A DNA stretch of 64,000 nt from Aurantibacillus circumpalustris (GTDB taxonomy: Bacteria > Bacteroidota > Bacteroidia > B-17B0 > Aurantibacillaceae), in contig NZ_CP121197.1 in assembly GCF_029625215.1 (NCBI RefSeq), forward strand, positions 4,154,001-4,218,000, read 5' to 3'. This document shows, piece after piece, positions 12,334 to 29,250 of the stretch. Under the pieces are notes generated by a model. The model searched no databases. It saw only the letters and a list, made by a program, of their open reading frames with translations, and had not been told where the DNA came from. Made by a program: the position numbers and the translations under genes. Numbering within the stretch: position 1 is the first letter of the stretch; every line of letters starts with the position of its first letter.

Positions 12334-12723
12334 ATGTCAACAGAAATAAATACAACCAGCCTGTCCTTCGTCGGTACACAAGAAGAACAGGGAGTAAAAC
12401 TAATTTTCACTCCTTCTAAGCGAAAGAAAACAAAAAAAATAAACATTGGTATTGAAGGGATTTTTAATCTCAGTTCGGCAAATTATGTACGTGAAAGTAT
12501 ATTACCTGCTATTTATGAATTTGAAACCATTGATATTTCTTTAAAAAACATACAACAAATAGATCTTTCGGCGCTACAATTATTGCACTACATGCAACAG
12601 TTAACTATCGAAAATCAGAAACAAATAAGCTTTGATGCCGAACTTTCAACAGAAGATAGGTCCTTACTCTTTAACGCAGGCTTAAAGCAACTTATTACTA
12701 AAGCTACTTTAACCGACAAATAA
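12334..12723 (+). CDS. STAS-domain protein (anti-anti-sigma factor type)
   Basis: 129 residues. The STAS core runs from about residue 35 to 125 after a charged N-terminal extension (KRKKTKK at 29-35). The segment QQIDLSALQLLHYM matches the conserved phospho-site loop of the family (D-S/L-S-G-L-x-L-L), with Ser79 as the candidate phospho-acceptor. Known STAS proteins of this type bind a Ser kinase and are reset by a SpoIIE phosphatase. Here the gene sits directly before cheY and cheA, so it may carry or modulate chemosensory output. The REC-SpoIIE protein at 4104-5675 could act on it. No cognate RsbW-like kinase is seen in the window. Confidence 0.85.
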   Translation: MSTEINTTSLSFVGTQEEQGVKLIFTPSKRKKTKKINIGIEGIFNLSSANYVRESILPAIYEFETIDISLKNIQQIDLSALQLLHYMQQLTIENQKQISFDAELSTEDRSLLFNAGLKQLITKATLTDK

Positions 12724-12729
12724 AAAAAA

Positions 12730-13098
12730 ATGAAAAAGAACATCCTAATTATAGATGACTCAGAAAGCATCCGCGAGGTAATTGCAGCAGGACTAGAAAG
12801 TGCCGGTTACAATGTTACCAAAGGAATTAATGGGCAAGATGGGCTTACCTGCCTTGAAAATAACCCAAGTGTTGAGTGCATTATTACAGATTTAAATATG
12901 CCTATTATGGACGGAATTACTTTCCTGAAGGAAGTAAGAAAATCTGAAAAGCATAAATATCTGCCAATTATTATTCTTACCACAGAATCGCAAGAGGCAA
13001 AAAAACAGGAAGCAAGAACAGCCGGAGCAACAGGTTGGATTATAAAGCCCTTTTCTAAAGAAAAACTTATTAATGTTATTAAAAAAGTAGTACGCTAA
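12730..13098 (+). CDS. cheY: CheY-type single-domain response regulator
   Basis: 122 residues, one receiver domain without output domain. Acidic pair Asp9-Asp10, phospho-acceptor Asp54 in IITDLNMPIMDG, Thr84 and Lys106 in IIKPF are all present; Trp103 occupies the aromatic switch position. It is the direct upstream neighbour of cheA (start and stop overlap as TAATG), so it is the first candidate to receive phosphate from CheA and to be the mobile output. Since no flagellar genes are visible, its target is unknown; gliding machinery or another effector are options. Confidence 0.95.
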   Translation: MKKNILIIDDSESIREVIAAGLESAGYNVTKGINGQDGLTCLENNPSVECIITDLNMPIMDGITFLKEVRKSEKHKYLPIIILTTESQEAKKQEARTAGATGWIIKPFSKEKLINVIKKVVR

Positions 13099-15173
13099 TG
13101 GATGCGATGCGGGTAACTTATTTGGAAGAAGCAAACGATTTGCTTTCCAATTTAGAAAGAGCTTTATTGGCTTTAGAAACAAACTCTAACGACAAATCTT
13201 ATATTGAAGAGGTTTTTAGGGTTATGCACACCTTGAAAGGAAATAGCAGCATGTTTGGTTTACCACTCATTGCTGAGTTTGTGCACGATTTAGAAACGAT
13301 TTATGATAAAATAAGAGTTGGGGAAATGGCTTTAAGCAAAGATCTCCTTGATTGCACATTTTTATGCTTGGATCATCTAAAAATTATTATTCATGATTCA
13401 GATTTAAATAATCAAATTAATAGAGACAATCATGAAAACCTTATTCATCAGATTACCGATTTTATTAATCAAAAAAAATCAGACGACACAAGCAAGAATT
13501 CAGAAAATATTCAACCAAGTTTAAAAACTTTTCACATAACATTTGAACCACAACCAACTATTTTTGAAAACGGTACCAATCCCCTATTCCTTCTAGCAGA
13601 GATAGCTAGCATGGGAAAAAGCCAGGCTATCCCGCATTTTAAATCCATTTCAAAACTTACCGATTATTCAGTAGATAGCTGTTTTACTTATTGGGATATT
13701 TATTTGGAAACAGAAAAAACAGACAAAGACATTATGGATGTTTTTGTTTTTGTTGAAGATTGTTCAAAAATTGAAATCACAGAATTACCAGGAATAAATC
13801 TCTTAAATAACACAACTTTTACAGATTTAATTTCAAAGAATCAATATCAAGATTTAAAAACAGATAAAGAAGAAATCACTTCTCTAGCGACCAGCCTTTT
13901 AACCGAAGTTAAACCTGAAACTGCTAAGCAAGAAGTTGCGGTTAAAACAACTGAAAAGACTGAAATAGTAGCGAAAGGAAAAAAGGAAAAAACTATTTCC
14001 AGTATTCGTGTATCATCTGACAAACTTGATGAATTAATGAATCTTGTTAGTGAATTAGTAACGACACAAGCAGGACTTTCTTTATTTGTTGCCAACAACA
14101 AAATTGCCGAATTAGAATTGATTACCGAGAATGTTGAAAAACTTTCGAGAAGATTAAGAGATACAGCCTTTGGCATGACCCTTGTACCAATCAATAACAT
14201 GTTCGGTCGTTTCCAACGTATGGTACGTGATGTATCTGGAGTTTTAGGTAAAGAAATTGAATTTATCACTGAAGGAGGAGAAACCGAACTAGATAAAACA
14301 ATTATTGAAACCCTTACCGATCCTTTGATGCACATTCTTAGAAACAGTCTTGATCACGGTGTTGAGAAAGGTGAAGAAAGAATAGCAAAAGGTAAACCGG
14401 CTTCGGGTAAAGTTATTTTAAAAGCCTTTTATTCAGGAGTTTTTGTTTACATACAAATTACAGATGATGGCAAAGGAATTGATGTAGAAGCAGTAAGAGC
14501 AAAGGCTATCAGTAAAGGCATTATTAAGGCTACAGATTATTTAAGTGAGAAAGAAGTTTTCGATTTAATTTTTTACCCTGGTTTTTCTACTGCTCAAAAA
14601 GTTACCGATGTATCGGGAAGAGGCGTAGGAATGGATGTTGTAAAACGTAACATTACCGATCTTAAAGGTTCTATCATTGTGGATTCAAAAATAAATGAAG
14701 GAACCACTTTAACCATTAAACTTCCTTTAACACTTTCCATTATTGATGGTCTGCTTGTTTCAATAGACAGCGTAAATTATATTATTCCATTATCCGTTAT
14801 TACAAAATGTTTTTCTGTAAATAATAAAGATATGATTGGAAGCTTTAATAATCTTATTGTACTCGATGAAGAGCAGGTTCCATTTATTCATTTAAGAGAA
14901 GAGTTTGGTTATAACAGTTTAGCGGCCGGTCAATCGCAGATGATTGTTGTAAATAATGGCGAAAGAAAAGTCGGCATTAGCGTTGACAATATTATTGGCG
15001 AATACCAAGCTGTTGTTAAGCCATTAGGTAAATATTATAAAAAACAGGATTTCGTTTCAGGCGCCTCCATTCTTGGAGATGGAACAATAGCACTTGTTTT
15101 AGACACAAATAAAGTAATCGATTTATATACACAAAACACACAAAAAGAAGAAAAATCATGGCAACTAAATTAA
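13098..15173 (+). CDS. cheA: Chemotaxis histidine kinase CheA
   Basis: 691 residues with the usual order. The P1 Hpt domain (1-105) has His44 in HTLKGNSSMFG. A divergent middle region (about 150-290) sits where P2 would be. The P3 dimerisation helices (about 300-365) include SDKLDELMNLV. The P4 HATPase (about 365-545) has HILRNSLDHG, DDGKGID and GRGVGMDVV. The P5 CheW-like domain (about 550-690) binds the receptor array. The start follows the cheY stop in a TAATG overlap, and cheW begins inside its last codons. CheA phosphorylates CheY and CheB in response to MCPs; three MCPs are encoded downstream. All catalytic motifs are intact. Confidence 0.97.
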   Translation: MDAMRVTYLEEANDLLSNLERALLALETNSNDKSYIEEVFRVMHTLKGNSSMFGLPLIAEFVHDLETIYDKIRVGEMALSKDLLDCTFLCLDHLKIIIHDSDLNNQINRDNHENLIHQITDFINQKKSDDTSKNSENIQPSLKTFHITFEPQPTIFENGTNPLFLLAEIASMGKSQAIPHFKSISKLTDYSVDSCFTYWDIYLETEKTDKDIMDVFVFVEDCSKIEITELPGINLLNNTTFTDLISKNQYQDLKTDKEEITSLATSLLTEVKPETAKQEVAVKTTEKTEIVAKGKKEKTISSIRVSSDKLDELMNLVSELVTTQAGLSLFVANNKIAELELITENVEKLSRRLRDTAFGMTLVPINNMFGRFQRMVRDVSGVLGKEIEFITEGGETELDKTIIETLTDPLMHILRNSLDHGVEKGEERIAKGKPASGKVILKAFYSGVFVYIQITDDGKGIDVEAVRAKAISKGIIKATDYLSEKEVFDLIFYPGFSTAQKVTDVSGRGVGMDVVKRNITDLKGSIIVDSKINEGTTLTIKLPLTLSIIDGLLVSIDSVNYIIPLSVITKCFSVNNKDMIGSFNNLIVLDEEQVPFIHLREEFGYNSLAAGQSQMIVVNNGERKVGISVDNIIGEYQAVVKPLGKYYKKQDFVSGASILGDGTIALVLDTNKVIDLYTQNTQKEEKSWQLN

Positions 15174-15947: not shown

Positions 15948-17867
15948 ATGTTAAAACAACAAACAACAATTAAGCTTAAACTATTAGTTTTTGCAACATC
16001 CACAATCTTAACGATGTGTATTCTGGGAATCTTCTTCTATCGCACTATTGGACGAATTGACCAGAATAGAAATATCAGTTCAGAATTCACGAGTGTGTGG
16101 GTAAAAACACTTGAACTAAGAAAATCAGAAAAAGATTTTTTATTAAGAGAAAATACAAATATGAATTTTTTTGAAACGGGCGAAAGTTCTTATGCGAAAA
16201 AATTAGATCAGACAGTTCTTGAAATTAACACGCTCATTACCGAGTTGAAACAATCAGATATTGTTCGTGAGAACGCAATTGATATCGACAGAATTGGCAA
16301 CCTGTTAAAACAATACCAAGAAAACTTCAAAAAAATTGTAGCAGCTAAACTAAAAAGAGGTGAACTTGATTTTGGTATTATAGGCCAAATGCGCAAAGCA
16401 GTTAGAAGCGTTGAAGAAGAGGTTACAAGTGACCCTAACGTAACCATTCAGATTTTAACATTAAGAAGGCATGAAAAAGATTACTTACTTCGAAAGGATC
16501 AAAAATATGTAGACGCACATGCCAAGGTTGTTCAATCACTACTTGAAAATAATAGTTTACCAACTACTTTGAAAGAAAAATTATTGACGTATCAAAAAAC
16601 ATTTAACTCGGTTGTAGAAATTGATGCGGCCATTGGCTTAACGCAAACTCAGGGCTTAGAAGGGGAGATTCGTGCGACTGTGCATAAGGTAGAACCAGCC
16701 ATTGATGAGATAACAGTAACACTTAACGACATCCTAGAAAAAGACAACGCACAAAGCTCTGCTATTTTAATGATCATTATTGCCGTTGGTATTACTATTG
16801 CCGTACTCATTTCATTTTTCTTAATCAGATCCATTTCATCTTCTTTAAATTATGCAGTTGAAACTGTAGGAAGAATTGCATCGGGTGATTTAAATTTTGA
16901 AATCACTGTTAAGAGCAAAGACGAAATTGGTCAACTCTTAGAGAAGATGAGCGTGATGACTTCTAAACTAAAGGAAATTATTTCAGCTATTAGAAATGCA
17001 TCACTTAATATTGCAACAGCCAGTACTCAAATGAACTCATCAGCGCAACAAATGTCAGAAGGCGCAACTGAACAAGCAAGCTCTGTAGAAGAAATATCAT
17101 CTTCCATGGAAGAAATGGCTGCGAATATTCAGCAAAACACAAATAATTCAAAACAAACCGAAAAAATTGCCAGCAGTGCTGCCAAAGATGTGTCTGAAAG
17201 TAACGAGGCGGTAACCAAAACGGTTTCTTCAATGAAAACGATCGCGAATAAAATTTCAATTATCGGAGAAATTTCAAGACAAACAAATTTATTAGCGCTT
17301 AACGCTGCTGTTGAAGCCGCACGTGCTGGAGAACATGGAAAAGGTTTTGCTGTTGTAGCTGCTGAAGTAAGAAAATTGGCTGAGAGAAGTCAGATTGCTG
17401 CTACCGAAATTAATGAGGTTTCTGCTGTGAGTGTAGACATCGCACAAAATTCTGGTGAATTGCTAAACAATGTTGTACCAAACATTCAAAAGACGTCTGA
17501 TCTTATTCAGGAAATAACTGCATCAAGTATTGAACAAAACGCCGGTGCTGAACAAGTAAATAATGCTATTCAACAACTTAATCAAGTAGTTCAGGAAAAC
17601 GCAGCCACTGCTGAAGAAATGGCGGCAGGTGCCGAAGAATTAAACGAACAAGCTGATAGTCTAAAAGAAATTATTTCGTTTTTTAAAACAGGAGATAATG
17701 ACAAAGACCAATTAACGTCGTCAAAAATTATTAGACATACTCCAAAAAAAGCAGGCTTAAGAACATTTACTACAACAAAAAGCGAAAATAACTTAACTAA
17801 AACGCATTCAAAAAATGTGCAGTTAGATCTTCAAGAAACTTCCGATGCCAATTACGAAAAATTTTAA
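15948..17867 (+). CDS. Methyl-accepting chemotaxis protein with HBM-like sensor
   Basis: 639 residues. TM1 is about 11-31 and TM2 about 271-293. The periplasmic region of about 240 residues has two related modules marked by [11 protein letters not shown] and [11 protein letters not shown], the pattern of the helical bimodular (HBM) sensor. A HAMP domain (about 294-346) and the cytoplasmic signalling domain follow, with methylation helices ([17 protein letters not shown]) and the hairpin tip [20 protein letters not shown] receptors of known function bind small organic acids, but the ligand here cannot be read off. No C-terminal CheR-tethering pentapeptide is obvious. A porin gene begins 31 bases downstream and is probably cotranscribed. 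Confidence 0.94.
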
Positions 17868-19412: not shown

Positions 19413-21107
19413 ATGAAAAAATTTAAAGACTTCAGTATAAAAACAAAAATATTGGCGATAGTAATCATCAACATTTTGTTTTACGTATCAATAGCAGTTA
19501 TTGTAATGCGAAATATTGAGAACCAACAAAAAGCAGAACAAGGCATTATATTGAACGGAAAAGTTCTTTTCAATTTTCAGGATGCCGATATGCAGCATGA
19601 TGCCATACGCGCTGATGTTTTCAAACTTACTTATGCAGTTTCAAGCAATTCTACACTCATTACCAGTGTACAAAGCGATTTTGAAGAACATACCAGCACC
19701 TTTCTATCAGATTTGGATTCTGTTGTTAAACTGAATGAAAATAAAGAGATTGAGATGCAAATTAGCTCCGTGAATCCTGCACTTAATGCTTATGTTGATT
19801 TTGGAAGAGAATTATTAAGCCTTTCATTAAAGGGCGACAGCGCTTCAAAAGCAACATTCTATTCGAAAATTACGGAATTTCAAACTGTATTCGATGAATT
19901 AGCTGTACAACAGGAAAAATTAAGCGAATTAATTTTACAAAATAACGAGGTTTTACAAGGTGAAATTGAAAAACAATCTTCGCGTTCGGTATTTGTATTA
20001 ATAACTGTAATTGTGTTCGCTATATTTTTCTCTTTTCTTTTAGGAATAGCAATTATAAATGCCATCATTAAACCATTAACTGTTGCCGTTTCTGTGGCAG
20101 AAAAAATTGCTAACGGTGATCTTACCACCACAATTAATCTTGATCAACAAGATGAAATAGGTGTACTTGCAAATTCATTGAAAAAAATGACCAGCAAATT
20201 ACAAGAGGTTATAGGTTTTATAGTTAACTCTTCTGATAACATTTCAAACGCAAGTAATCAAATGAGCTCTTCTGCACAACAAATGTCGGAAGGCGCTACA
20301 GAGCAAGCAAGCTCTGTTGAAGAAATTTCATCTTCTATGGAAGAAATGGCTGCTAACATTCAACAAAACACGAACAACTCAAAACAAACCGAAAAAATTG
20401 CACGCAGTGCGGCAAAAGATGTTACAGAAAGTAATGAAGCAGTTAGTAAGACTGTGAATTCAATGAAAACAATTGCCAACAAAATTTCAATAATCGGAGA
20501 AATTTCACGTCAAACAAATTTATTGGCACTCAACGCGGCTGTTGAAGCTGCAAGAGCCGGAGAACATGGCAAAGGATTTGCAGTGGTTGCTGCTGAAGTA
20601 AGAAAATTAGCTGAAAGAAGTCAGTTAGCTGCTACCGAAATAAACGAAGTATCATCTGTTAGCGTAGATATCGCACAAAAATCGGGTGAGTTATTAAACA
20701 GTGTTGTTCCTAATATCCAAAAAACGTCTGACCTTATTCAAGAAATTACTGCATCTAGTGTTGAACAAAATACAGGTGCAGATCAGGTTAATAATGCGAT
20801 TCAACAATTAAATCAAGTTGTTCAAGAAAATGCAGCAACTGCTGAAGAAATGGCTGCAGGTGCAGAAGAATTAAACACGCAGGCAGAAAGTTTAAAGGAA
20901 ATGGTATCCTTTTTCAAAATTGAGTCAACAAACAAATTCAACCACTCTACAAAACAAAGCACCAGTTACAGTGCAGAAATAGAAAAGAAAAATGCGGTTA
21001 GATCTTCAAAAGTTTTTACTGATCGCCCGGGAAACGTAACTAAAAAATCGAGTTTCAAAAATGAGTTCACTGCAATTGCGGACAATGAATACGAAAGTTT
21101 CAACTAA
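19413..21107 (+). CDS. Methyl-accepting chemotaxis protein (4-helix-bundle type sensor)
   Basis: 564 residues. TM1 is about 13-33, a mostly helical periplasmic domain spans 34-190, TM2 is about 193-218 and HAMP about 220-270. The signalling domain is nearly identical in its core to the other two MCPs ([19 protein letters not shown] and [20 protein letters not shown]). The sensor part is unrelated to the first MCP, so the receptors probably see different ligands but share one array. It heads the operon that carries the adaptation enzymes; cheR starts 23 bases downstream. Confidence 0.94.
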
Positions 21108-21130: not shown

Positions 21131-21991
21131 ATGCAAGTACAACAATTAATTAATCAATATAATAAAGAACTTAGCGATAAGGACTTTACAAAACTGAGCA
21201 ATTTTATTTTTTCGAATTATGGCATAAAAATGCCACCCGCTAAAAAAGGAATGCTTCAGGCTCGCTTACAAAGCAGACTTAGAGCAACAAATATTGGTTC
21301 ATTTAAAGAATATTGCGATTACATATTTTCGCTAAACAATACCGATCCTGAAGTTGTTCAAATGATTGATGTTGTATCTACTAATAAAACAGACTTCTAC
21401 AGAGAATCGGCTCATTTTGATTTTATGTTGTCAACTGCTTTACCTGAATTCGATAAACAGTATCGTAGAGAAAATCTAAAAGTATGGAGTTCGGCCTGTT
21501 CAAGCGGTGAAGAAGTATACACTATAGCAATGGTTATTAGCGAGTACCTTGAGAACAACAAAAATTTTGATTATAGCGTTTTAGGTACTGATATTTCTTC
21601 AAGAATTCTTGCTAAAGCCAGCAATGCTATCTATGGAGAAGATCGTGTAGAAGGCATTCCATTAAACATAAAACGTAAATACCTTTTAAGAAGCAAGAAT
21701 AGAGAAAATCCAAGCGTAAGACTCATTCCTGAAATTAGGAAACGCGCAAGTTACCAGCGTTTGAATCTTATGGACGAACAGTATAGCTCAGTTCCCAGAG
21801 ATTTTGATATTGTTTTTTGTAGAAATGTACTCATTTACTTTGATCGTCCAACACAAGAAAGTGTTATTAATAAACTGTGTAGGCATCTTAAACCTGGTGG
21901 TTACTTTTTCCTCGGTCACTCTGAGTCTATCACAGGAATTGACGTGCCCCTTAAACAAATAAAACCAACCATTTTTAAAAAGATTGATTAA
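21131..21991 (+). CDS. cheR: Chemotaxis protein methyltransferase CheR
   Basis: 286 residues. The small N-terminal helical domain (about 15-85) is followed by the SAM-dependent methyltransferase domain, with SSACSSGEEVYTIAMV as the cofactor loop and DIVFCRNVLIYF as the post-III motif. It methylates Glu side chains on MCP signalling helices with S-adenosylmethionine and works against CheB. The stop is 1 base from the start of the next gene. Confidence 0.96.
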   Translation: MQVQQLINQYNKELSDKDFTKLSNFIFSNYGIKMPPAKKGMLQARLQSRLRATNIGSFKEYCDYIFSLNNTDPEVVQMIDVVSTNKTDFYRESAHFDFMLSTALPEFDKQYRRENLKVWSSACSSGEEVYTIAMVISEYLENNKNFDYSVLGTDISSRILAKASNAIYGEDRVEGIPLNIKRKYLLRSKNRENPSVRLIPEIRKRASYQRLNLMDEQYSSVPRDFDIVFCRNVLIYFDRPTQESVINKLCRHLKPGGYFFLGHSESITGIDVPLKQIKPTIFKKID

Positions 21992-21992
21992 T

Positions 21993-22892
21993 ATGGATCC
22001 AAAAAAATCAGATAAAGAACTCATTAACGAGTTAACATTACGTTTTGAAAAAAACAATGCGCTGCTTAAAGAACAACATTCTTTACTTAACGAATTACAA
22101 AAAGTAAACAAAAAGCTTATAGCCTCCGAAGGTCTAAAAAGTAATTTTCTTTCAAACATTCGCAACGAAATAAATAATCCTGTAGCCTCAATTCTTGAAT
22201 TGTCGAAAAACATTTCAGAAGGAACTCTGAGTGTAGATGCCGTAAAAAAATTCGCGTCACTCATTTATTCTGAAACATTTAGTTTAGACTTTCAATTACG
22301 CAACATATTTGCTTCCGCAGAGATAGAGGCAGGAGAATCTATTGTTTGTCCTGTATCTATTAAATTACCATCTCTCATCGAAACGATCTTATTATCTTTT
22401 AAGCATCAAATTGAGAAAAAAAACATTCAAATATTTGTAAGTACGTCTATAGCTGATGATGAAAATTTCTGTTCCGATCCTGAAAAGTTGCATTTAATTT
22501 TAAGTAATTTAATATCAAACGCAGTTCAGTTTAGTCGCGAAGGAACCTCTATTGAAATAAAGTTTGAAATTGAGAATGATCAATTCATCTTTTCTGTTTT
22601 AGATAACGGCATGGGAATAAGCACTGAAGAAAAAGAAATTATTTTTGACCGATTCCGTCAAATTGAAGAAGGCTCAACAAAAAATTATGGTGGCCATGGT
22701 CTTGGACTAAGTATCACGAGAGCCTTACTAGAATTAATTGATGGAGAAATAAAAGTTGAAAGTGAAAAAAATGTTGGAAGCTTTTTTTCTATTTGTGTGA
22801 ATGAGGCTAAGGAATCAACTATTGAAAAAGACATTTATTCCACTGATGGTAATGATTTTATTTTTGTTGACAACGATAGCCTAGTGTTTTAA
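21993..22892 (+). CDS. Soluble histidine-kinase-like protein lacking the phospho-acceptor His
   Basis: 299 residues from ATG 21993. A TTG at 21984 would add three residues inside cheR, but the ATG directly after the cheR stop is simpler. Residues 1-45 are a coiled coil. The HisKA-like region reads FLSNIRNEINNPVAS, in which the invariant His of the H-box is Asn (residue 58). The HATPase domain is intact: N-box LILSNLISNAVQFS, G1 DNGMGIS and G2 YGGHGLGLSI. No membrane segment or receiver is present. It may bind ATP and modulate or phosphorylate a partner without being a normal autokinase; a Ser-kinase role in partner switching is a speculative alternative. It lies between cheR and cheD, so a role in adaptation or array control is likely. 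Confidence 0.85.
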   Translation: MDPKKSDKELINELTLRFEKNNALLKEQHSLLNELQKVNKKLIASEGLKSNFLSNIRNEINNPVASILELSKNISEGTLSVDAVKKFASLIYSETFSLDFQLRNIFASAEIEAGESIVCPVSIKLPSLIETILLSFKHQIEKKNIQIFVSTSIADDENFCSDPEKLHLILSNLISNAVQFSREGTSIEIKFEIENDQFIFSVLDNGMGISTEEKEIIFDRFRQIEEGSTKNYGGHGLGLSITRALLELIDGEIKVESEKNVGSFFSICVNEAKESTIEKDIYSTDGNDFIFVDNDSLVF

Positions 22893-22895
22893 TAT

Positions 22896-24438
<1,543 letters not shown>

Positions 24439-24456: not shown

Positions 24457-24828
24457 ATGAAAAAAGTATTAATTGTAGACGACTCCTTATTTATGAGACA
24501 GTCAATTAAAAGTACACTCATTAACAGCGGAAAATATGAAGTTGTTGGAGAAGCAGCAACAGGTGATCAAGGAATTGAATTATCACTTGACTTACAACCA
24601 GACATCATAACAATGGATAATATATTACCTGATATGTTAGGTATCGATATTATTAAAGAATTAAGAAAAGAAGAAGTTACTGCCAAAATTATTATGGTAA
24701 GTGCTGTAGGTCAGGAAAGCATTATTAACGAATGTAGATCATCAGGAGCCGACGATTATTTGGTAAAACCATTTAGCAATGAAAGTTTGATTGAACGCAT
24801 CGACAAATTAGCTCTTGAACTAAATTAA
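24457..24828 (+). CDS. Second CheY-type response regulator
   Basis: 123 residues, stand-alone receiver. Asp8-Asp9, phospho-acceptor Asp54 in IITMDNILPDM, Ser in MVSAVG and Lys in LVKPF are present. The loop after the acceptor is NILPD instead of the usual MP-x-MDG, so it belongs to a different CheY subgroup from the one before cheA. Two CheYs with one CheA and a CheC fit a design in which one CheY is output and the other a phosphate sink or adaptation signal. It lies 18 bases after cheB. Confidence 0.93.
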   Translation: MKKVLIVDDSLFMRQSIKSTLINSGKYEVVGEAATGDQGIELSLDLQPDIITMDNILPDMLGIDIIKELRKEEVTAKIIMVSAVGQESIINECRSSGADDYLVKPFSNESLIERIDKLALELN

Positions 24829-24875: not shown

Positions 24876-25517
24876 ATGGAAAATTTAAATAGTACAGAAC
24901 TATTTGCCGCTAAAACGATCATTAATCAGGGACTTGAAAAAGCTGCGCAATCCCTTTCATTCTTTATGAAGGAAGAAATCACCTTTAAAGAATTAAGTTT
25001 CAGCATTAATAAAGTAAATAAAAACATTGACTTCACGAGTAAATTCGGAAAGAACATTCATTTATTAATTACCAACGTGATTGGAGAATTGAAAGGTGTT
25101 TGTTGTTTGATCTTCTCAGAAGAAGAAGCTGACAAATTGAAACAAACTGCATTACCAAAAGAAATAATTGAAAATCCCGAATTAATGGCTGAAATGGCAG
25201 ATGCTATTATGCTTGAGGTAGACAATATTATTTCCGCGTCGGTGATTACTAAATTCTCGGATATTTTAAATCATAAAATATACGGTGGAGTACCAGAACT
25301 TAAAAAATTGAGTTTTGAAGAAATGAATGATTACGTAACAAATAACTTTTTACAAGACTTGTATATCATTAATTTCAAAACACAATTTCAATCTTCTCAC
25401 CTTAACTTTAACCCTGAGTTTGTTTGGTTGTTTGACAATACTTTTCTCAATAGCATTAAATCATTTGCTCTCGATGGCAGTAATATCGACAAACTAGAAG
25501 TTAGTTCTATGGCTTAA
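24876..25517 (+). CDS. CheC/CheX-family CheY-P phosphatase
   Basis: 213 residues. Residues about 105-135 (MADAIMLEVDNIISASVI) match the phosphatase helix of the CheC/CheX/FliY family, with the E-x-x-N pair Glu114 and Asn117. Only one such active-site helix is clear; classical CheC has two. The N-terminal region SFSINKVNKN with later beta strands fits the family fold. It is the last gene of the operon and probably dephosphorylates one of the two CheY proteins; CheD may regulate it. The gene ends 4 bases from the convergent downstream gene, within a palindrome. Confidence 0.82.
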   Translation: MENLNSTELFAAKTIINQGLEKAAQSLSFFMKEEITFKELSFSINKVNKNIDFTSKFGKNIHLLITNVIGELKGVCCLIFSEEEADKLKQTALPKEIIENPELMAEMADAIMLEVDNIISASVITKFSDILNHKIYGGVPELKKLSFEEMNDYVTNNFLQDLYIINFKTQFQSSHLNFNPEFVWLFDNTFLNSIKSFALDGSNIDKLEVSSMA

Positions 25518-25543
25518 ACATTTAACCAAATGTTTTAAGCCAT
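25509..25543. terminator. Hairpin covering two convergent stop codons
   Basis: Arms ATGGCTTAAACATTT and AAATGTTTTAAGCCAT, one bulged base, 4-base loop AACC. The stem contains the stop codon of the CheC-type gene on + and of the SpoIIAA-like gene on -. There is no T tract, so a bidirectional transcription or RNA-stability hairpin is likelier than a strong intrinsic terminator. Confidence 0.6.
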
Positions 25544-25926
25544 TGAATGGCCTTATGTTTACTTGAAAATGAATTAACCGGTACTTTAGAGTAATCAAAA
25601 TCTTTGTAAAATTTATAGATTACCATTTTTGAGAAAGAATCAGTTAAAAAGGCATTTGCAAGGCGATACTTGGCATACTCAGAAGTAGTCCGGTAATTAA
25701 TTGCTCCACGCGAAAGTAGAACAAAACCATTTATTGTAATATAAGCCGGGAGCTTTTTACCCTCACCTAATTCGTGGATCCGTTTATTTAGATCCACTAA
25801 ATGGCGTTTCTTTATTTTAGTTAGGCTTAACGGAACATCAATTTCTATGATGTTATTTGAATTTAATTGCACCGAGATATTCATTTTATCATCGGCACTT
25901 GATTTGAGGGCTGATTTATTTTTCAT
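25522..25926 (-). CDS. SpoIIAA-like/STAS-fold protein (divergent member)
   Basis: 134 residues, cytosolic, no signal peptide. The C-terminal third (LTDSFSKMVIYKFY ... SSKHKAIQWLKTF) matches the end of the SpoIIAA-like/DUF7793-type family, in which a hydrophobic helix and a final A-x-x-WL helix are typical. A charged N-terminal tail precedes the first strand. It is more distant from the two paralogs upstream (26109 and 26669). Function is unknown; proteins of this fold may act like STAS partners. It is monocistronic, with its own promoter. Confidence 0.65.
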   Translation of the reverse strand: MKNKSALKSSADDKMNISVQLNSNNIIEIDVPLSLTKIKKRHLVDLNKRIHELGEGKKLPAYITINGFVLLSRGAINYRTTSEYAKYRLANAFLTDSFSKMVIYKFYKDFDYSKVPVNSFSSKHKAIQWLKTFG

Positions 25927-25954
25927 TGGTTCACTGTATTAGCGAAATTCAATA

Positions 25955-25980
25955 CAAAATTAATTCGTACCTCTTCCAAA
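25955..25980 (-). promoter_or_regulatory. Promoter of the first SpoIIAA-like gene
   Basis: On the minus strand TTTG (25977-25980) and TAATTTTG (25955-25962) are spaced 14 bases apart, close to the Bacteroidota -33/-7 arrangement, 28 bases before the start codon. Confidence 0.65.
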
Positions 25981-26108
25981 CAGAAGTTAAATAAACCCTC
26001 TTCACAAATTGCAACACCATTCCTTAACCAAATTTAAATGGAGTCTAAAGAATCTTAATGTAGTTTATTTGATTTTGGATTTTAAACAAGTAAATAAATC
26101 TGCTTATT

Positions 26109-26525
26109 TTACTTTGAATTATGAAGCCAATTAATTGCGTCTTCTTTATTATCAAAATACCTTGTAGGTCGTTTAGGTCTTCTGAAATTCATGTAAAAAT
26201 TACCAAGTATTTTAAGTGGTAAAGAGTCTAGCACCTGAGCCTCGCGACTTACATAGGGACATGCCGTTTCTTCATTTCCCCAATAAGCACTGGCCTCTGC
26301 ACTAGGAAAAGTAAATTTTTCACAGGAAAGTAAAACTGGCACTCTTTTAAACTCCACCATTTCACCAATTGCCTGAAAAAGTAATTTAAAATCTTCAGGT
26401 ACCCATTGCCTATTGTTTAAAACATGAATGCATAGAATTCCATCTTCTCTTAAAGAAACTTTATATTTTGTTACAATCCGCTCAACTATAATTCTCACAT
26501 CGGAACTAACATTTGCTGCTACCAT
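26109..26525 (-). CDS. SpoIIAA-like/STAS-fold protein
   Basis: 138 residues, cytosolic. It aligns along its length with the neighbour at 26669-27085: shared LREDGIL, LDSLPLKILGNFY and RPTRYFDNKEDAINWL against RPTKIFDNRDEATAWL. This C-terminal pattern is typical of the SpoIIAA-like/DUF7793-type family. No catalytic residues are obvious. Its place between cheC and a third MCP, together with STAS, SpoIIE and SiaC-like genes nearby, suggests a regulatory role, but the partner is unknown. It has its own TAnnTTTG promoter, so it is not simply an operon member. Confidence 0.75.
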   Translation of the reverse strand: MVAANVSSDVRIIVERIVTKYKVSLREDGILCIHVLNNRQWVPEDFKLLFQAIGEMVEFKRVPVLLSCEKFTFPSAEASAYWGNEETACPYVSREAQVLDSLPLKILGNFYMNFRRPKRPTRYFDNKEDAINWLHNSK

Positions 26526-26606
26526 AACTTTCTTTTTAAAATTTAAAAATTTTAGTGCTAAAAATCATCCGCTGAATTATAAAAGATTCCTAAATAATCC
26601 TTAAAA

Positions 26607-26614
26607 CAAAAATA
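26607..26614 (-). promoter_or_regulatory. -7 element of the second SpoIIAA-like gene
   Basis: TATTTTTG on the minus strand fits TAnnTTTG exactly, about 80 bases before the start. The same octamer precedes the paralog at 27085. Confidence 0.5.
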
Positions 26615-26668
26615 AGAAAAATCTGACTGAATTTTATAGATAGTTTTTGCGAGCAAATTTAAACCGAA

Positions 26669-27085
26669 CTATAAAAATGTCTTTAACCAGGCAGTGGCTT
26701 CATCCCTATTATCAAAAATTTTTGTTGGTCGCAAAGGCCTTTTAATTTTCAAATAAAAATTTCCCAATATCTTAAGGGGTAATGAATTTAATATATGTGC
26801 GTCGGCACTTATGTATGGGCTAATCTTACTAGGATTAGATGAATATTTAATAGACTCTTGAGAAGGAAAAACTAATTCATCATAAGTAACCATTAAGGGT
26901 ATCTTCTTTTTGTTAACTATTTTTTCAATTGCAGGCAAAAGTAAGTTATAATCGTTCGGCGACCATTTAAAACCACTAGAAATATGACAATGAAGAATAC
27001 CGTCCTCTCTTAGTTTAAGAGTGTACATGCCTACCACTATTTCAGCTACAATTTTAACTTCAGTGTTATGTTTTTGAATAAGCAT
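26669..27085 (-). CDS. SpoIIAA-like/STAS-fold protein (paralog)
   Basis: 138 residues and the same length and motif order as the gene at 26109: LREDGILHCHI, LNSLPLKILGNFYLK and FDNRDEATAWLKTF. The two look like a tandem duplication that has diverged, mainly in the middle. No membrane segment. It is divergent from the MCP gene at 27544 across a 458-base region. Its role is unknown; a STAS-like partner in signalling is the best guess from fold and context. Confidence 0.75.
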   Translation of the reverse strand: MLIQKHNTEVKIVAEIVVGMYTLKLREDGILHCHISSGFKWSPNDYNLLLPAIEKIVNKKKIPLMVTYDELVFPSQESIKYSSNPSKISPYISADAHILNSLPLKILGNFYLKIKRPLRPTKIFDNRDEATAWLKTFL

Positions 27086-27543: not shown

Positions 27544-29250
27544 ATGACAAAAAAAATCAAACTGAACCTTGCCAGTAGAATTGCACTCGGTTATGTAATC
27601 GTAATCATATTTGCTGTAATTAATGCCATAATAGGAGTGACTTTATTGGCAAAAGTAAAATCAATCGACAAAGACATAAGAGAAGTTTATGTAAAATCTT
27701 CTGAGCAAATTAAAGAATACAAAAACCTACTTGCGTCTACAAAAAAATTAAGCAACGCCTGGATTTTTCAACCAAATGCAGAAGATAAAAAACTTTTAGA
27801 GTTAAGTTATAAAACTACTTTACCGGAATTAATACTTGAAACCGGCAATGTTCTTAAGCATATTGAAGGTTTTCAAAATGACAACAAATTTATTGGAATT
27901 GATAGAGATTCTAAAACCCTGTTAAGTGAGACACAAAAATTAACAGAACAATTAAAAACAGCTGACGATTACGTTGATGACAAAAAAGTAGATGCTGCAC
28001 TGCTAATATTTAATGAAAAAATTGATCCATTAACTAAATCCCTTGAAAAAGACCTTAGCGATTTATTTGAAAGCATTGATACAAAAAGCAAAGAACTTTT
28101 AAAGGAAAAAGAATCATCCTTTTCAACCTTAAAATACAGCTTAATTCTTTTAGCAGTATTTCTGGTAATTATCGGATTCATTTCTTCCTACTTAACAACA
28201 AGCAATATTACACGCTTAGTTGGAGGCGAACCCGAAGACGTATTATTAATGGCAAATAAAATTTCTCAGGGCAACTTAACATTCGACATAACTGAAAAAG
28301 ACAGAGAAAGAAAGGGCATTTATGGAGCTATGATTTTAATGACTGACGAATTAAAAACAGTAATCAGCTCGGTTATTCATAGTTCTCAAAATATAGAAAT
28401 AGCCAGTTCAGAAATGAGTTCTTCTGCGCAACAAATGTCGGAAGGTGCTACAGATCAAGCGAGTTCAGTAGAAGAAATTTCTTCTTCAATGGAAGAGATG
28501 ACTGCTAACATTCAGCAAAACACAAACAACTCTAAACAAACTGAAAAAATTGCCAAACAAGCAGCTAAAGACATTAGCGAAGGAAATGAATCTGTAAATA
28601 AAACGGTTGCCTCAATGCGCACTATAGCTGATAAAATTTCAATTATTGGCGAAATTTCACGTCAAACTAATTTACTTGCATTAAACGCAGCTGTTGAAGC
28701 CGCACGTGCTGGTGAACATGGAAAAGGATTTGCAGTGGTTGCTGCCGAAGTAAGAAAATTGGCTGAAAAAAGTCAGGAAGCTGCTACAGAAATTAACGAA
28801 GTATCCTCTATAAGTGTTGCTATTGCACAACGTTCAGGAGAACTTCTTCATGATGTAGTTCCTAATATTCAAAAAACATCTGACTTAGTTCAGGAAATTA
28901 CAGCAGCAAGTGTTGAACAAAATGCAGGTACCAATCAAGTAAATAACGCCATTCAACAATTGAATCAGGTGGTTCAGGCTAACGCTGCAACAGCAGAGCA
29001 AATGGCTGCAGGAGCAAAAGAATTAAACACTCAGTCTCTCCATTTAAAAGAAGCAATTGCTTTCTTTAAAGTTGATACCCACAGTTCAACAAAAACTAGC
29101 TTCAGAAAGGCACCCACTAATTTCTCTAAAACTTATGCTCCAAAAAGAGTATCTAACGGAATAATAGCTAAGAATACAAAAAAGGCTAGCCCGGTGAGCA
29201 TTGATCTAGGAGAAAATCATTCTACAAACGATGAATATCAAAAATATTAA
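27544..29250 (+). CDS. Methyl-accepting chemotaxis protein (4HB-type sensor)
   Basis: 568 residues. TM1 is about 13-38, the periplasmic helical bundle 39-195 (4HB_MCP-like) and TM2 about 198-218. A HAMP-like linker ([15 protein letters not shown]) is followed by the signalling domain with [19 protein letters not shown] and [20 protein letters not shown]. The signalling half is nearly the same as in the other two MCPs, the sensor is not. A porin gene and a PstS-like binding protein gene follow closely, so the receptor may respond to a solute handled by them; this is inference from context. Confidence 0.94.

What the first reader, a model, noticed from the sequence alone, without database searches (positions are those of the whole stretch)
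21993..22892. Kinase-like protein in the che operon with Asn replacing the phospho-acceptor His
Seen: the H-box reads NIRNEINNP, while all ATP-binding boxes are intact. It sits between cheR and cheD. Known: HATPase proteins without His can be Ser kinases (RsbW type) or allosteric partners. Inference: an ATP-binding regulator of the array, or the missing kinase for the STAS-type proteins nearby.
Basis: partly seen in the sequence, partly recalled or inferred. Interest (0 to 1): 0.62.

Follow-up and report, generated by a model that had tools for sequence, protein, structure and literature searches.

The report
Histidine-less kinase partnered with CheD
A sensor-kinase-like protein that has lost the histidine such kinases need is encoded right beside one special type of the chemotaxis protein CheD in bacteria of several phyla, which points to an undescribed regulator of how bacteria adapt to signals.

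Summary
Window 21993-22892 encodes a 299-residue HisKA/HATPase_c protein whose H-box reads FLSNIR-N-EINNP, with intact ATP-binding boxes. I call it HKn. It is no recent mutation: 122 of 122 distinct orthologs have Asn there, and the ATP-box residues are (nearly) invariant. Of 71 rows from whole-genome profile searches, 19 lack the peptide NIRNEINN used in the first scan; all 71 carry Asn. In a tree with 44 other kinases HKn forms one clade (UFBoot 99, SH-aLRT 85.9).

The main new finding is its partner. In 152 of 154 loci, all that have sequence downstream, the next gene is cheD (120 distinct pairs). That CheD belongs to a subclass with a WN motif after the catalytic His. In 9 of 37 loci with full flanks the pair has no other che gene within 8 kb; in several Nitrospirota it lies between dnaN and gyrB.

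Best reading: a pseudo-histidine kinase acting with CheD, probably CheC-like, docking a phosphorylated response regulator through its retained ExxN pair. The CheD link rests on gene linkage; the mechanism is inference. The STAS-kinase idea is not supported.

The parts
21993..22892 (+). HKn: His-less HisKA/HATPase_c protein, 299 aa
22146..22181 (+). H-box FLSNIRNEINNP (residues 52-63); Asn58 codon 22164-22166
   Evidence: Asn58 in 122 of 122 distinct orthologs
22476..22802 (+). HATPase_c domain (residues 162-270) with intact ATP-binding boxes
22830..22889 (+). C-terminal tail with conserved GNxFxF core (residues 280-299)
   Evidence: 97 of 122 match G[NDS].F.F
22896..23357 (+). cheD of the WN subclass (WNGEGL at 23058-23075), obligate neighbour of HKn
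   Evidence: Pfam CheD 1.8e-24
21131..21991 (+). cheR, upstream neighbour (variable among relatives)
13098..15173 (+). cheA of the same gene cluster
23359..24438 (+). cheB
24457..24828 (+). Stand-alone receiver (CheY-like), candidate regulator to be docked
24876..25517 (+). CheC-like protein
   Evidence: Weak NCBIfam CheC match 1.4e-6, below cut-off; no Pfam match

Best explanation
HKn is a pseudo-histidine kinase that works as the dedicated partner of a CheD subclass. Shown by sequence: a HisKA-type DHp hairpin plus an intact ATP-binding domain, no phospho-acceptor His in any ortholog examined, and gene pairing with WN-type CheD. Inferred: it forms an ATP-bound dimer that cannot autophosphorylate at the usual site. 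Its DHp bundle docks a phosphorylated response regulator (CheY~P or the CheB receiver) through the H-box face, which keeps the E-x-x-N pair at H+1/H+4, and this changes how much CheD is free to act on receptors. It would thus do, on a kinase scaffold, what CheC does in Bacillus: bind CheD and couple it to CheY~P, possibly with weak phosphatase activity. The two conserved ends (N-terminal helix TDxELxxELxxRF and C-terminal GNxFxF tail) are the likeliest partner-binding elements.
For: Asn58 122 of 122; E59 with N62 115 of 122. N172, N176, G206, F221 in 122 of 122 and G234/G236/G238 in 121 of 121 scored rows. cheD next in 152 of 154, the other 2 ending at a contig end. Paired CheD: WN motif in 152 of 152; of 19 unpaired CheDs in HKn loci, 16 cover that region and none has it. 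Genome level: Nitrospirota set, the same 20 of 198 genomes hold HKn and a CheD of 200 bits or more; Geobacter-order set, 31 of 97 hold HKn and all 31 hold the subclass CheD (one cut by a contig end), 2 more hold it without a detected HKn, and the 53 genomes with only lower-scoring CheDs have no HKn at E 1e-60. Reverse test: 49 of 50 fetched CheD loci of 200 bits or more hold HKn, 0 of 10 lower-scoring ones do. Pair without other che genes within 8 kb in 9 of 37. One clade. Predicted fold closest to HK853 in complex with its response regulator, with the pseudo-kinase DivL at rank 13. Precedents: DivL, a pseudo-kinase sensing DivK~P (PMC4211667, passages); CheC/CheD/CheYp (PMC3513319, abstract and Introduction).
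Against: No biochemical data; gene pairing does not prove binding. Paired coevolution gave no robust signal. HKn lacks a conserved CheD recognition motif of receptor type: [AS]xx[QE][QE]xx[AS] occurs in 12 of 122, at no conserved place. Bacteroidota operons with HKn also carry a CheC-like gene, so HKn does not simply replace CheC there. Orphan pairs have no stand-alone regulator right beside them. In G803 a normal His-bearing kinase lies upstream of a divergent WN-type CheD (L209), so loss of His is not absolutely required for the slot, and in G887 a WN-like CheD has no HKn beside it (L248).
Confidence: 0.45

Rival explanations
1. Dedicated response-regulator phosphatase: with His gone, HKn only removes phosphate from CheY~P or CheB~P, using E59-x-x-N62, and its link to CheD is just operon logic.
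For: ExxN kept in 115 of 122. The H+4 Asn is needed for phosphatase activity in the HisKA kinase CrdS, and CheX uses an ExxN pair (PMC3510030, abstract and passages). CrdS H371A loses kinase activity but only part of its phosphatase activity (same). That NtrB H139N keeps phosphatase activity is recalled; one search did not yield a paper on it.
Against: In HK853 the His helps position the catalytic water and H260A has diminished phosphatase activity; PleC H610A loses it (PMC5727384 and PMC3510030, passages). E59 is needed for kinase, not phosphatase, in CrdS, so its retention is not explained. Seven of 122 orthologs lost E or N. It does not explain the pairing with one CheD subclass, nor pairs lying between dnaN and gyrB with no regulator gene beside them.
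Confidence: 0.2
2. ATP-gated scaffold: HKn simply binds ATP and CheD (and perhaps receptors), reporting energy state to CheD, with no contact to response regulators.
For: ATP boxes as invariant as Asn58; orphan pairs without che genes nearby; conserved N- and C-terminal motifs outside the catalytic core.
Against: The H-box face that docks regulators in HisKA kinases is among the most conserved parts of the protein, which a pure scaffold would not obviously need.
Confidence: 0.18
3. Kinase acting in trans: the intact ATP domain phosphorylates another protein (CheD, an Hpt, or another kinase in a heterodimer), as CheA P4 does to P1.
For: ATP-domain boxes intact, and E59, the residue needed for kinase activity in CrdS, kept in 119 of 122.
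Against: No gene other than cheD accompanies it throughout; in the two orphan loci whose neighbours I read, no other histidine kinase lies beside it.
Confidence: 0.1
4. Ser kinase of RsbW type for the STAS-like and DUF7793 proteins of this window.
For: A small STAS-like gene lies at the head of the operon (12334-12723; label by eye, no Pfam match) and relatives of it in 7 of 80 loci.
Against: HisKA-type fold, not a lone HATPase domain; no STAS relative found in the other 73 loci, with a weak query.
Confidence: 0.03

Closest known systems
DivL, pseudo-histidine kinase of Caulobacter (PDB 4q20)
   Same: HisKA-type DHp-CA with a non-His residue at the phosphorylation site; among the best structural matches to the HKn model (rank 13, TMq 0.66).
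   Different: DivL has Tyr (Ala in one species) and PAS domains, binds ATP weakly, has neither kinase nor phosphatase activity and acts in the cell-cycle pathway (PMC4211667, passages). HKn has Asn, no PAS match in Pfam, conserved ATP boxes and pairs with CheD.
HK853 of Thermotoga maritima in complex with RR468 (3dge, 5uht)
   Same: Best fold matches of the HKn model (TMq up to 0.70); sequence match 2.3e-23.
   Different: HK853 has the acceptor His and is a bifunctional kinase/phosphatase.
CheC/CheD/CheYp adaptation system of Bacillus subtilis
   Same: A CheD partner that may couple CheD to phosphorylated CheY; CheC too is a CheYp phosphatase with a two-residue active motif.
   Different: CheC is no histidine-kinase homologue (recalled). 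The pairing of HKn with CheD is known only from gene linkage.
Type 2 chemotaxis clusters of Geobacter with 34H receptors
   Same: CheD plus genes of unknown function, receptors with CheR-tethering tails (PMC2577667, section 9).
   Different: That section does not mention a His-less kinase; whether its unknown ORFs include HKn was not checked.

Membership tests
Histidine kinase (HisKA + HATPase_c) | DHp hairpin and CA domain fold | tested here: met
   Pfam HATPase_c 3e-25, HisKA below cut-off; model pLDDT 83.2 matching HK853.
Histidine kinase (HisKA + HATPase_c) | Phospho-acceptor His in the H-box | tested here: not met
   Asn in 122 of 122 distinct orthologs.
Histidine kinase (HisKA + HATPase_c) | N, D/G1, F and G2 ATP-binding boxes | tested here: met
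   N172, N176, G206, F221 in 122 of 122; D204, R220 in 121 of 122; G234, G236, G238 in 121 of 121.
Pseudo-histidine kinase (DivL-like) | Stable replacement of the acceptor His in orthologs | tested here: met
Pseudo-histidine kinase (DivL-like) | Binding of phosphorylated response regulator without phosphotransfer | not testable with these tools
   Needs purified proteins.
CheD-partner protein (CheC-like function) | Physical binding to CheD | not testable with these tools
   Only indirect: cheD next in 152 of 154 loci; coevolution inconclusive.
CheD-partner protein (CheC-like function) | Receptor-like CheD recognition motif | tested here: not met
   12 of 122, no conserved position; the CheC-like protein of this window lacks it as well.
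RsbW-type Ser kinase | Single-domain HATPase without a DHp hairpin | tested here: not met
   DHp hairpin predicted, helices 7-75 and 81-112.

The most novel reading that the evidence does not exclude
A histidine-kinase scaffold was turned, once and long ago, into the steady partner of a CheD subclass, making a CheC-independent adaptation module (HKn-CheD) spread over several phyla. In some Nitrospirota it sits inside the dnaA-dnaN-gyrB region, possibly tying receptor adaptation to the replication-origin locus.
Probability: 0.35. Interest if true: 0.75.

Novelty: new variant of a known kind. Interest (0 to 1): 0.6.

Why it matters
Natural pseudo-histidine kinases with a worked-out role are few (recalled). 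This family is conserved over several phyla, keeps its ATP site, and comes with an obvious candidate partner, so its function can be tested directly. If the CheD link holds, it adds an adaptation module to chemosensory systems and gives a reason for the CheD subclass with the WN motif. Among the rows listed by seven paper searches (open-licence papers only, long lists cut) no title or shown abstract describes it.

Tried and rejected
Recent mutation of the acceptor His: rejected, 122 of 122 distinct orthologs have Asn. Bias from the search peptide NIRNEINN: checked with whole-genome profile searches; 19 of 71 rows lack that peptide and all 71 keep Asn. Limits: the profile was built from loci, 12 of the 71 rows are the window (1) or genomes reached from loci (11), other genomes also overlap, and only the best candidates of each genome were scored. 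One hit (G957) got no locus there; it too has Asn (L243).

The first automatic count of the downstream gene gave 140 of 154. The 12 'other' cases were artefacts of stop-to-stop ORFs and became CheD once domain coordinates were used; the remaining 2 end at contig ends. The 154 include repeats of the same gene (122 distinct).

C-terminal tail as a CheR-tethering pentapeptide: considered because receptors in these loci end in such tails; rejected because the conserved core is GNxFxF and many Geobacter-type tails lack the terminal aromatic residue. CheD recognition motif in HKn: not found. HKn-CheD coevolution by mutual information: 120 pairs, about 65 effective. Against 60 shuffles of partners within clades cut at 45% identity the top score and the share of tail residues were exceeded only 1 and 2 times, but at 55% it was 7 and 38 times and at 65% 29 and 57 times; I treat it as null. 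Replacement of CheC: mixed; 5 of 12 HKn genomes have no Pfam match to CheC or CheX, but three of these five (G000, G391, G392) carry the CheC-like gene of this operon type.

Full report
What is there. Window 21993-22892 (+) encodes a 299-residue protein, called HKn here. One base separates it from the cheR stop codon and three bases from the cheD start codon. It has no recognised sensor domain: a long N-terminal helix runs into the DHp hairpin (helices 7-75 and 81-112), followed by an ATP-binding domain and a tail of low model confidence. The H-box is FLSNIR-N-EINNP; Asn58 replaces the acceptor His.

Fixed, not recent. Scans found 154 HKn open frames with 122 distinct cores. Asn58 is present in 122 of 122, E59 in 119, N62 in 115 (4 Asp, 3 Ser), and both E59 and N62 in 115. 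N172, N176, G206 and F221 are present in 122 of 122, and G234, G236, G238 in the 121 rows scored. The first scan used NIRNEINN as one of six search peptides and kept the best 80 of 132 relatives, so I repeated the search with a profile over whole genomes. HKn was found at E of 1e-60 or better in 11 of 297 genomes of the phylum of Trichlorobacter, 20 of 198 of the phylum of a Nitrospirota genome, 31 of 97 of the Trichlorobacter order and 7 of 148 of the order of a Cyclobacteriaceae genome. In an even draw of 296 genomes of the window's own phylum only the window's genome has it; the other 5 genomes passing E 1e-60 hold kinases with His. A protein search at E 1e-30 in 87 family genomes gave hits in 20, of which 3 (the window's own included) are orthologs of matching length. 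All 71 HKn rows have Asn, and 19 of them lack NIRNEINN. The other 6 of the 77 rows have SHE. In a tree of 65 HKn and 44 other kinases HKn is one clade, UFBoot 99, SH-aLRT 85.9, stem length 1.65.

Distribution. Record titles name Flavobacteriales, Cyclobacteriaceae, Nitrospirota, Geobacter-related and other Deltaproteobacteria, Calditrichaeota, candidate division KSB1 and Pontiellaceae. Most are metagenome bins, so single assignments may be wrong; L048, labelled Kuenenia, is a 3-kb contig whose HKn starts with the same residues as that of L034 and is probably misbinned.

The partner. cheD is the next gene in 152 of 154 loci; the other 2 end at a contig end. After removal of repeats there are 120 distinct pairs. 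The median gap to the CheD domain is 34 bases. Upstream genes vary: the nearest recognised gene is CheR in 47, CheB in 22, CheW in 16, MCP in 4, CheA in 3, CheD in 1 and none in 61 of 154. The paired CheD carries a WN motif six residues after the His that aligns with the one of Thermotoga CheD (that it is catalytic is recalled): WNGEG in 108, other WNG in 37, and WN followed by another residue in 7 of 152. That His is kept in 152 of 152 and a T..LGSC-type pattern in 148 of 152. Of 19 CheDs in HKn loci that are not paired with HKn, 16 cover this region (two of them the same gene) and none has the motif. By genome, 20 of 198 in the Nitrospirota set hold HKn, and the same 20 are the only ones with a CheD of 200 bits or more. 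In the Geobacter-order set 31 of 97 hold HKn; these 31 (G956 cut by a contig end) plus two others (G887, G898) hold the subclass CheD, and the 53 genomes with only lower-scoring CheDs have no HKn. Read from the CheD side, 49 of 50 fetched loci with a CheD of 200 bits or more contain HKn, all with Asn, and 0 of 10 lower-scoring ones do. Exceptions: G887 has a variant motif (WSGEGE) and no HKn beside it; in G803 a divergent WN-type CheD follows a kinase with a normal HDFNN box. G898 was not inspected.

Away from che genes. Of 37 loci with both 8-kb flanks, 27 hold at least two other kinds of che or receptor genes, one holds only cheB, and 9 hold none, by profiles made from the window's genes. 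In Candidatus Magnetominusculus xianensis the order is dnaA-dnaN-HKn-cheD-gyrB-gyrA (dnaA, dnaN and gyrB confirmed by Pfam; gyrA by eye). dnaN and gyrB also flank the pair in L044, L046, L049, L050, L052 and in genomes G786, G770 and G749. A pair that keeps together outside che clusters argues that HKn acts with CheD rather than with cheR.

How it probably works. The fold matches HK853 bound to its response regulator (TMq up to 0.70) and DivL (0.66); this is a single-chain model and says nothing certain about conformation in the cell. Work on CrdS assigns kinase function to the H+1 acid and phosphatase function to the H+4 Thr/Asn, and notes ExxN in CheX (PMC3510030, abstract and passages). HKn keeps both residues in 115 of 122. 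HK853 H260A has diminished phosphatase activity (PMC5727384, passages), so strong phosphatase activity is doubtful. DivL shows that a His-less kinase can become a sensor of a phosphorylated regulator (PMC4211667, passages). In Bacillus, CheC binds CheD, the affinity rises with CheYp, and this binding matters more than either enzyme activity (PMC3513319, abstract and Introduction). The simplest synthesis is that HKn is a CheC-like partner of CheD on a kinase scaffold. The pairing is shown at gene level only; binding, regulator docking and effect are inference.

Against. No motif like the receptor site of CheD is conserved in HKn (12 of 122). Paired coevolution gave nothing robust. Bacteroidota operons carry a CheC-like gene as well. 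The Pfam CheC and CheX searches found no match in 5 of 12 HKn genomes, but they also missed the CheC-like protein of this window.

The ATP-binding regulator idea stands; the STAS kinase idea does not. Papers: PMC2577667 was seen in passages and section 9, PMC9491836 in abstract and outline only (an engineered-by-evolution pseudokinase that forms heterodimers, a precedent for allosteric action). No paper on this family turned up among the rows listed in searches; the library holds only open-licence papers.

Noticed in passing
L045:5515-14249; also L044, L046, L049, L050, L052, L151-L153: The HKn-cheD pair lies between dnaN and gyrB in several Nitrospirota, including genomes whose DnaN is only about 50% identical to that of L045.
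   Followed up: partly
L209 (genome G803): A divergent WN-type CheD is preceded by a kinase with a normal HDFNN His box instead of HKn.
   Followed up: partly
L248 (genome G887): CheD with a WSGEGE variant stands without HKn next to it.
   Followed up: partly
window 15948-17867, 19413-21107, 27544-29250: The three receptors end in YEKF, YESFN and YQKY, resembling CheR-tethering pentapeptides; their conserved helical [AS]xx[QE][QE]xx[AS] sites near the C-terminal half read EE or EQ.
   Followed up: no
window 24876-25517: CheC-like protein with only a weak NCBIfam CheC match (1.4e-6, far below cut-off) and no Pfam match.
   Followed up: no
window 25522-27085 (-): Three neighbouring DUF7793 proteins on the opposite strand beside the che operon.
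   Followed up: no
L157 and L154 (genome G848): Genome with two HKn copies, the only one with two among the genomes with HKn; one copy (L157) is divergent and has an internal TAG in the match.
   Followed up: no
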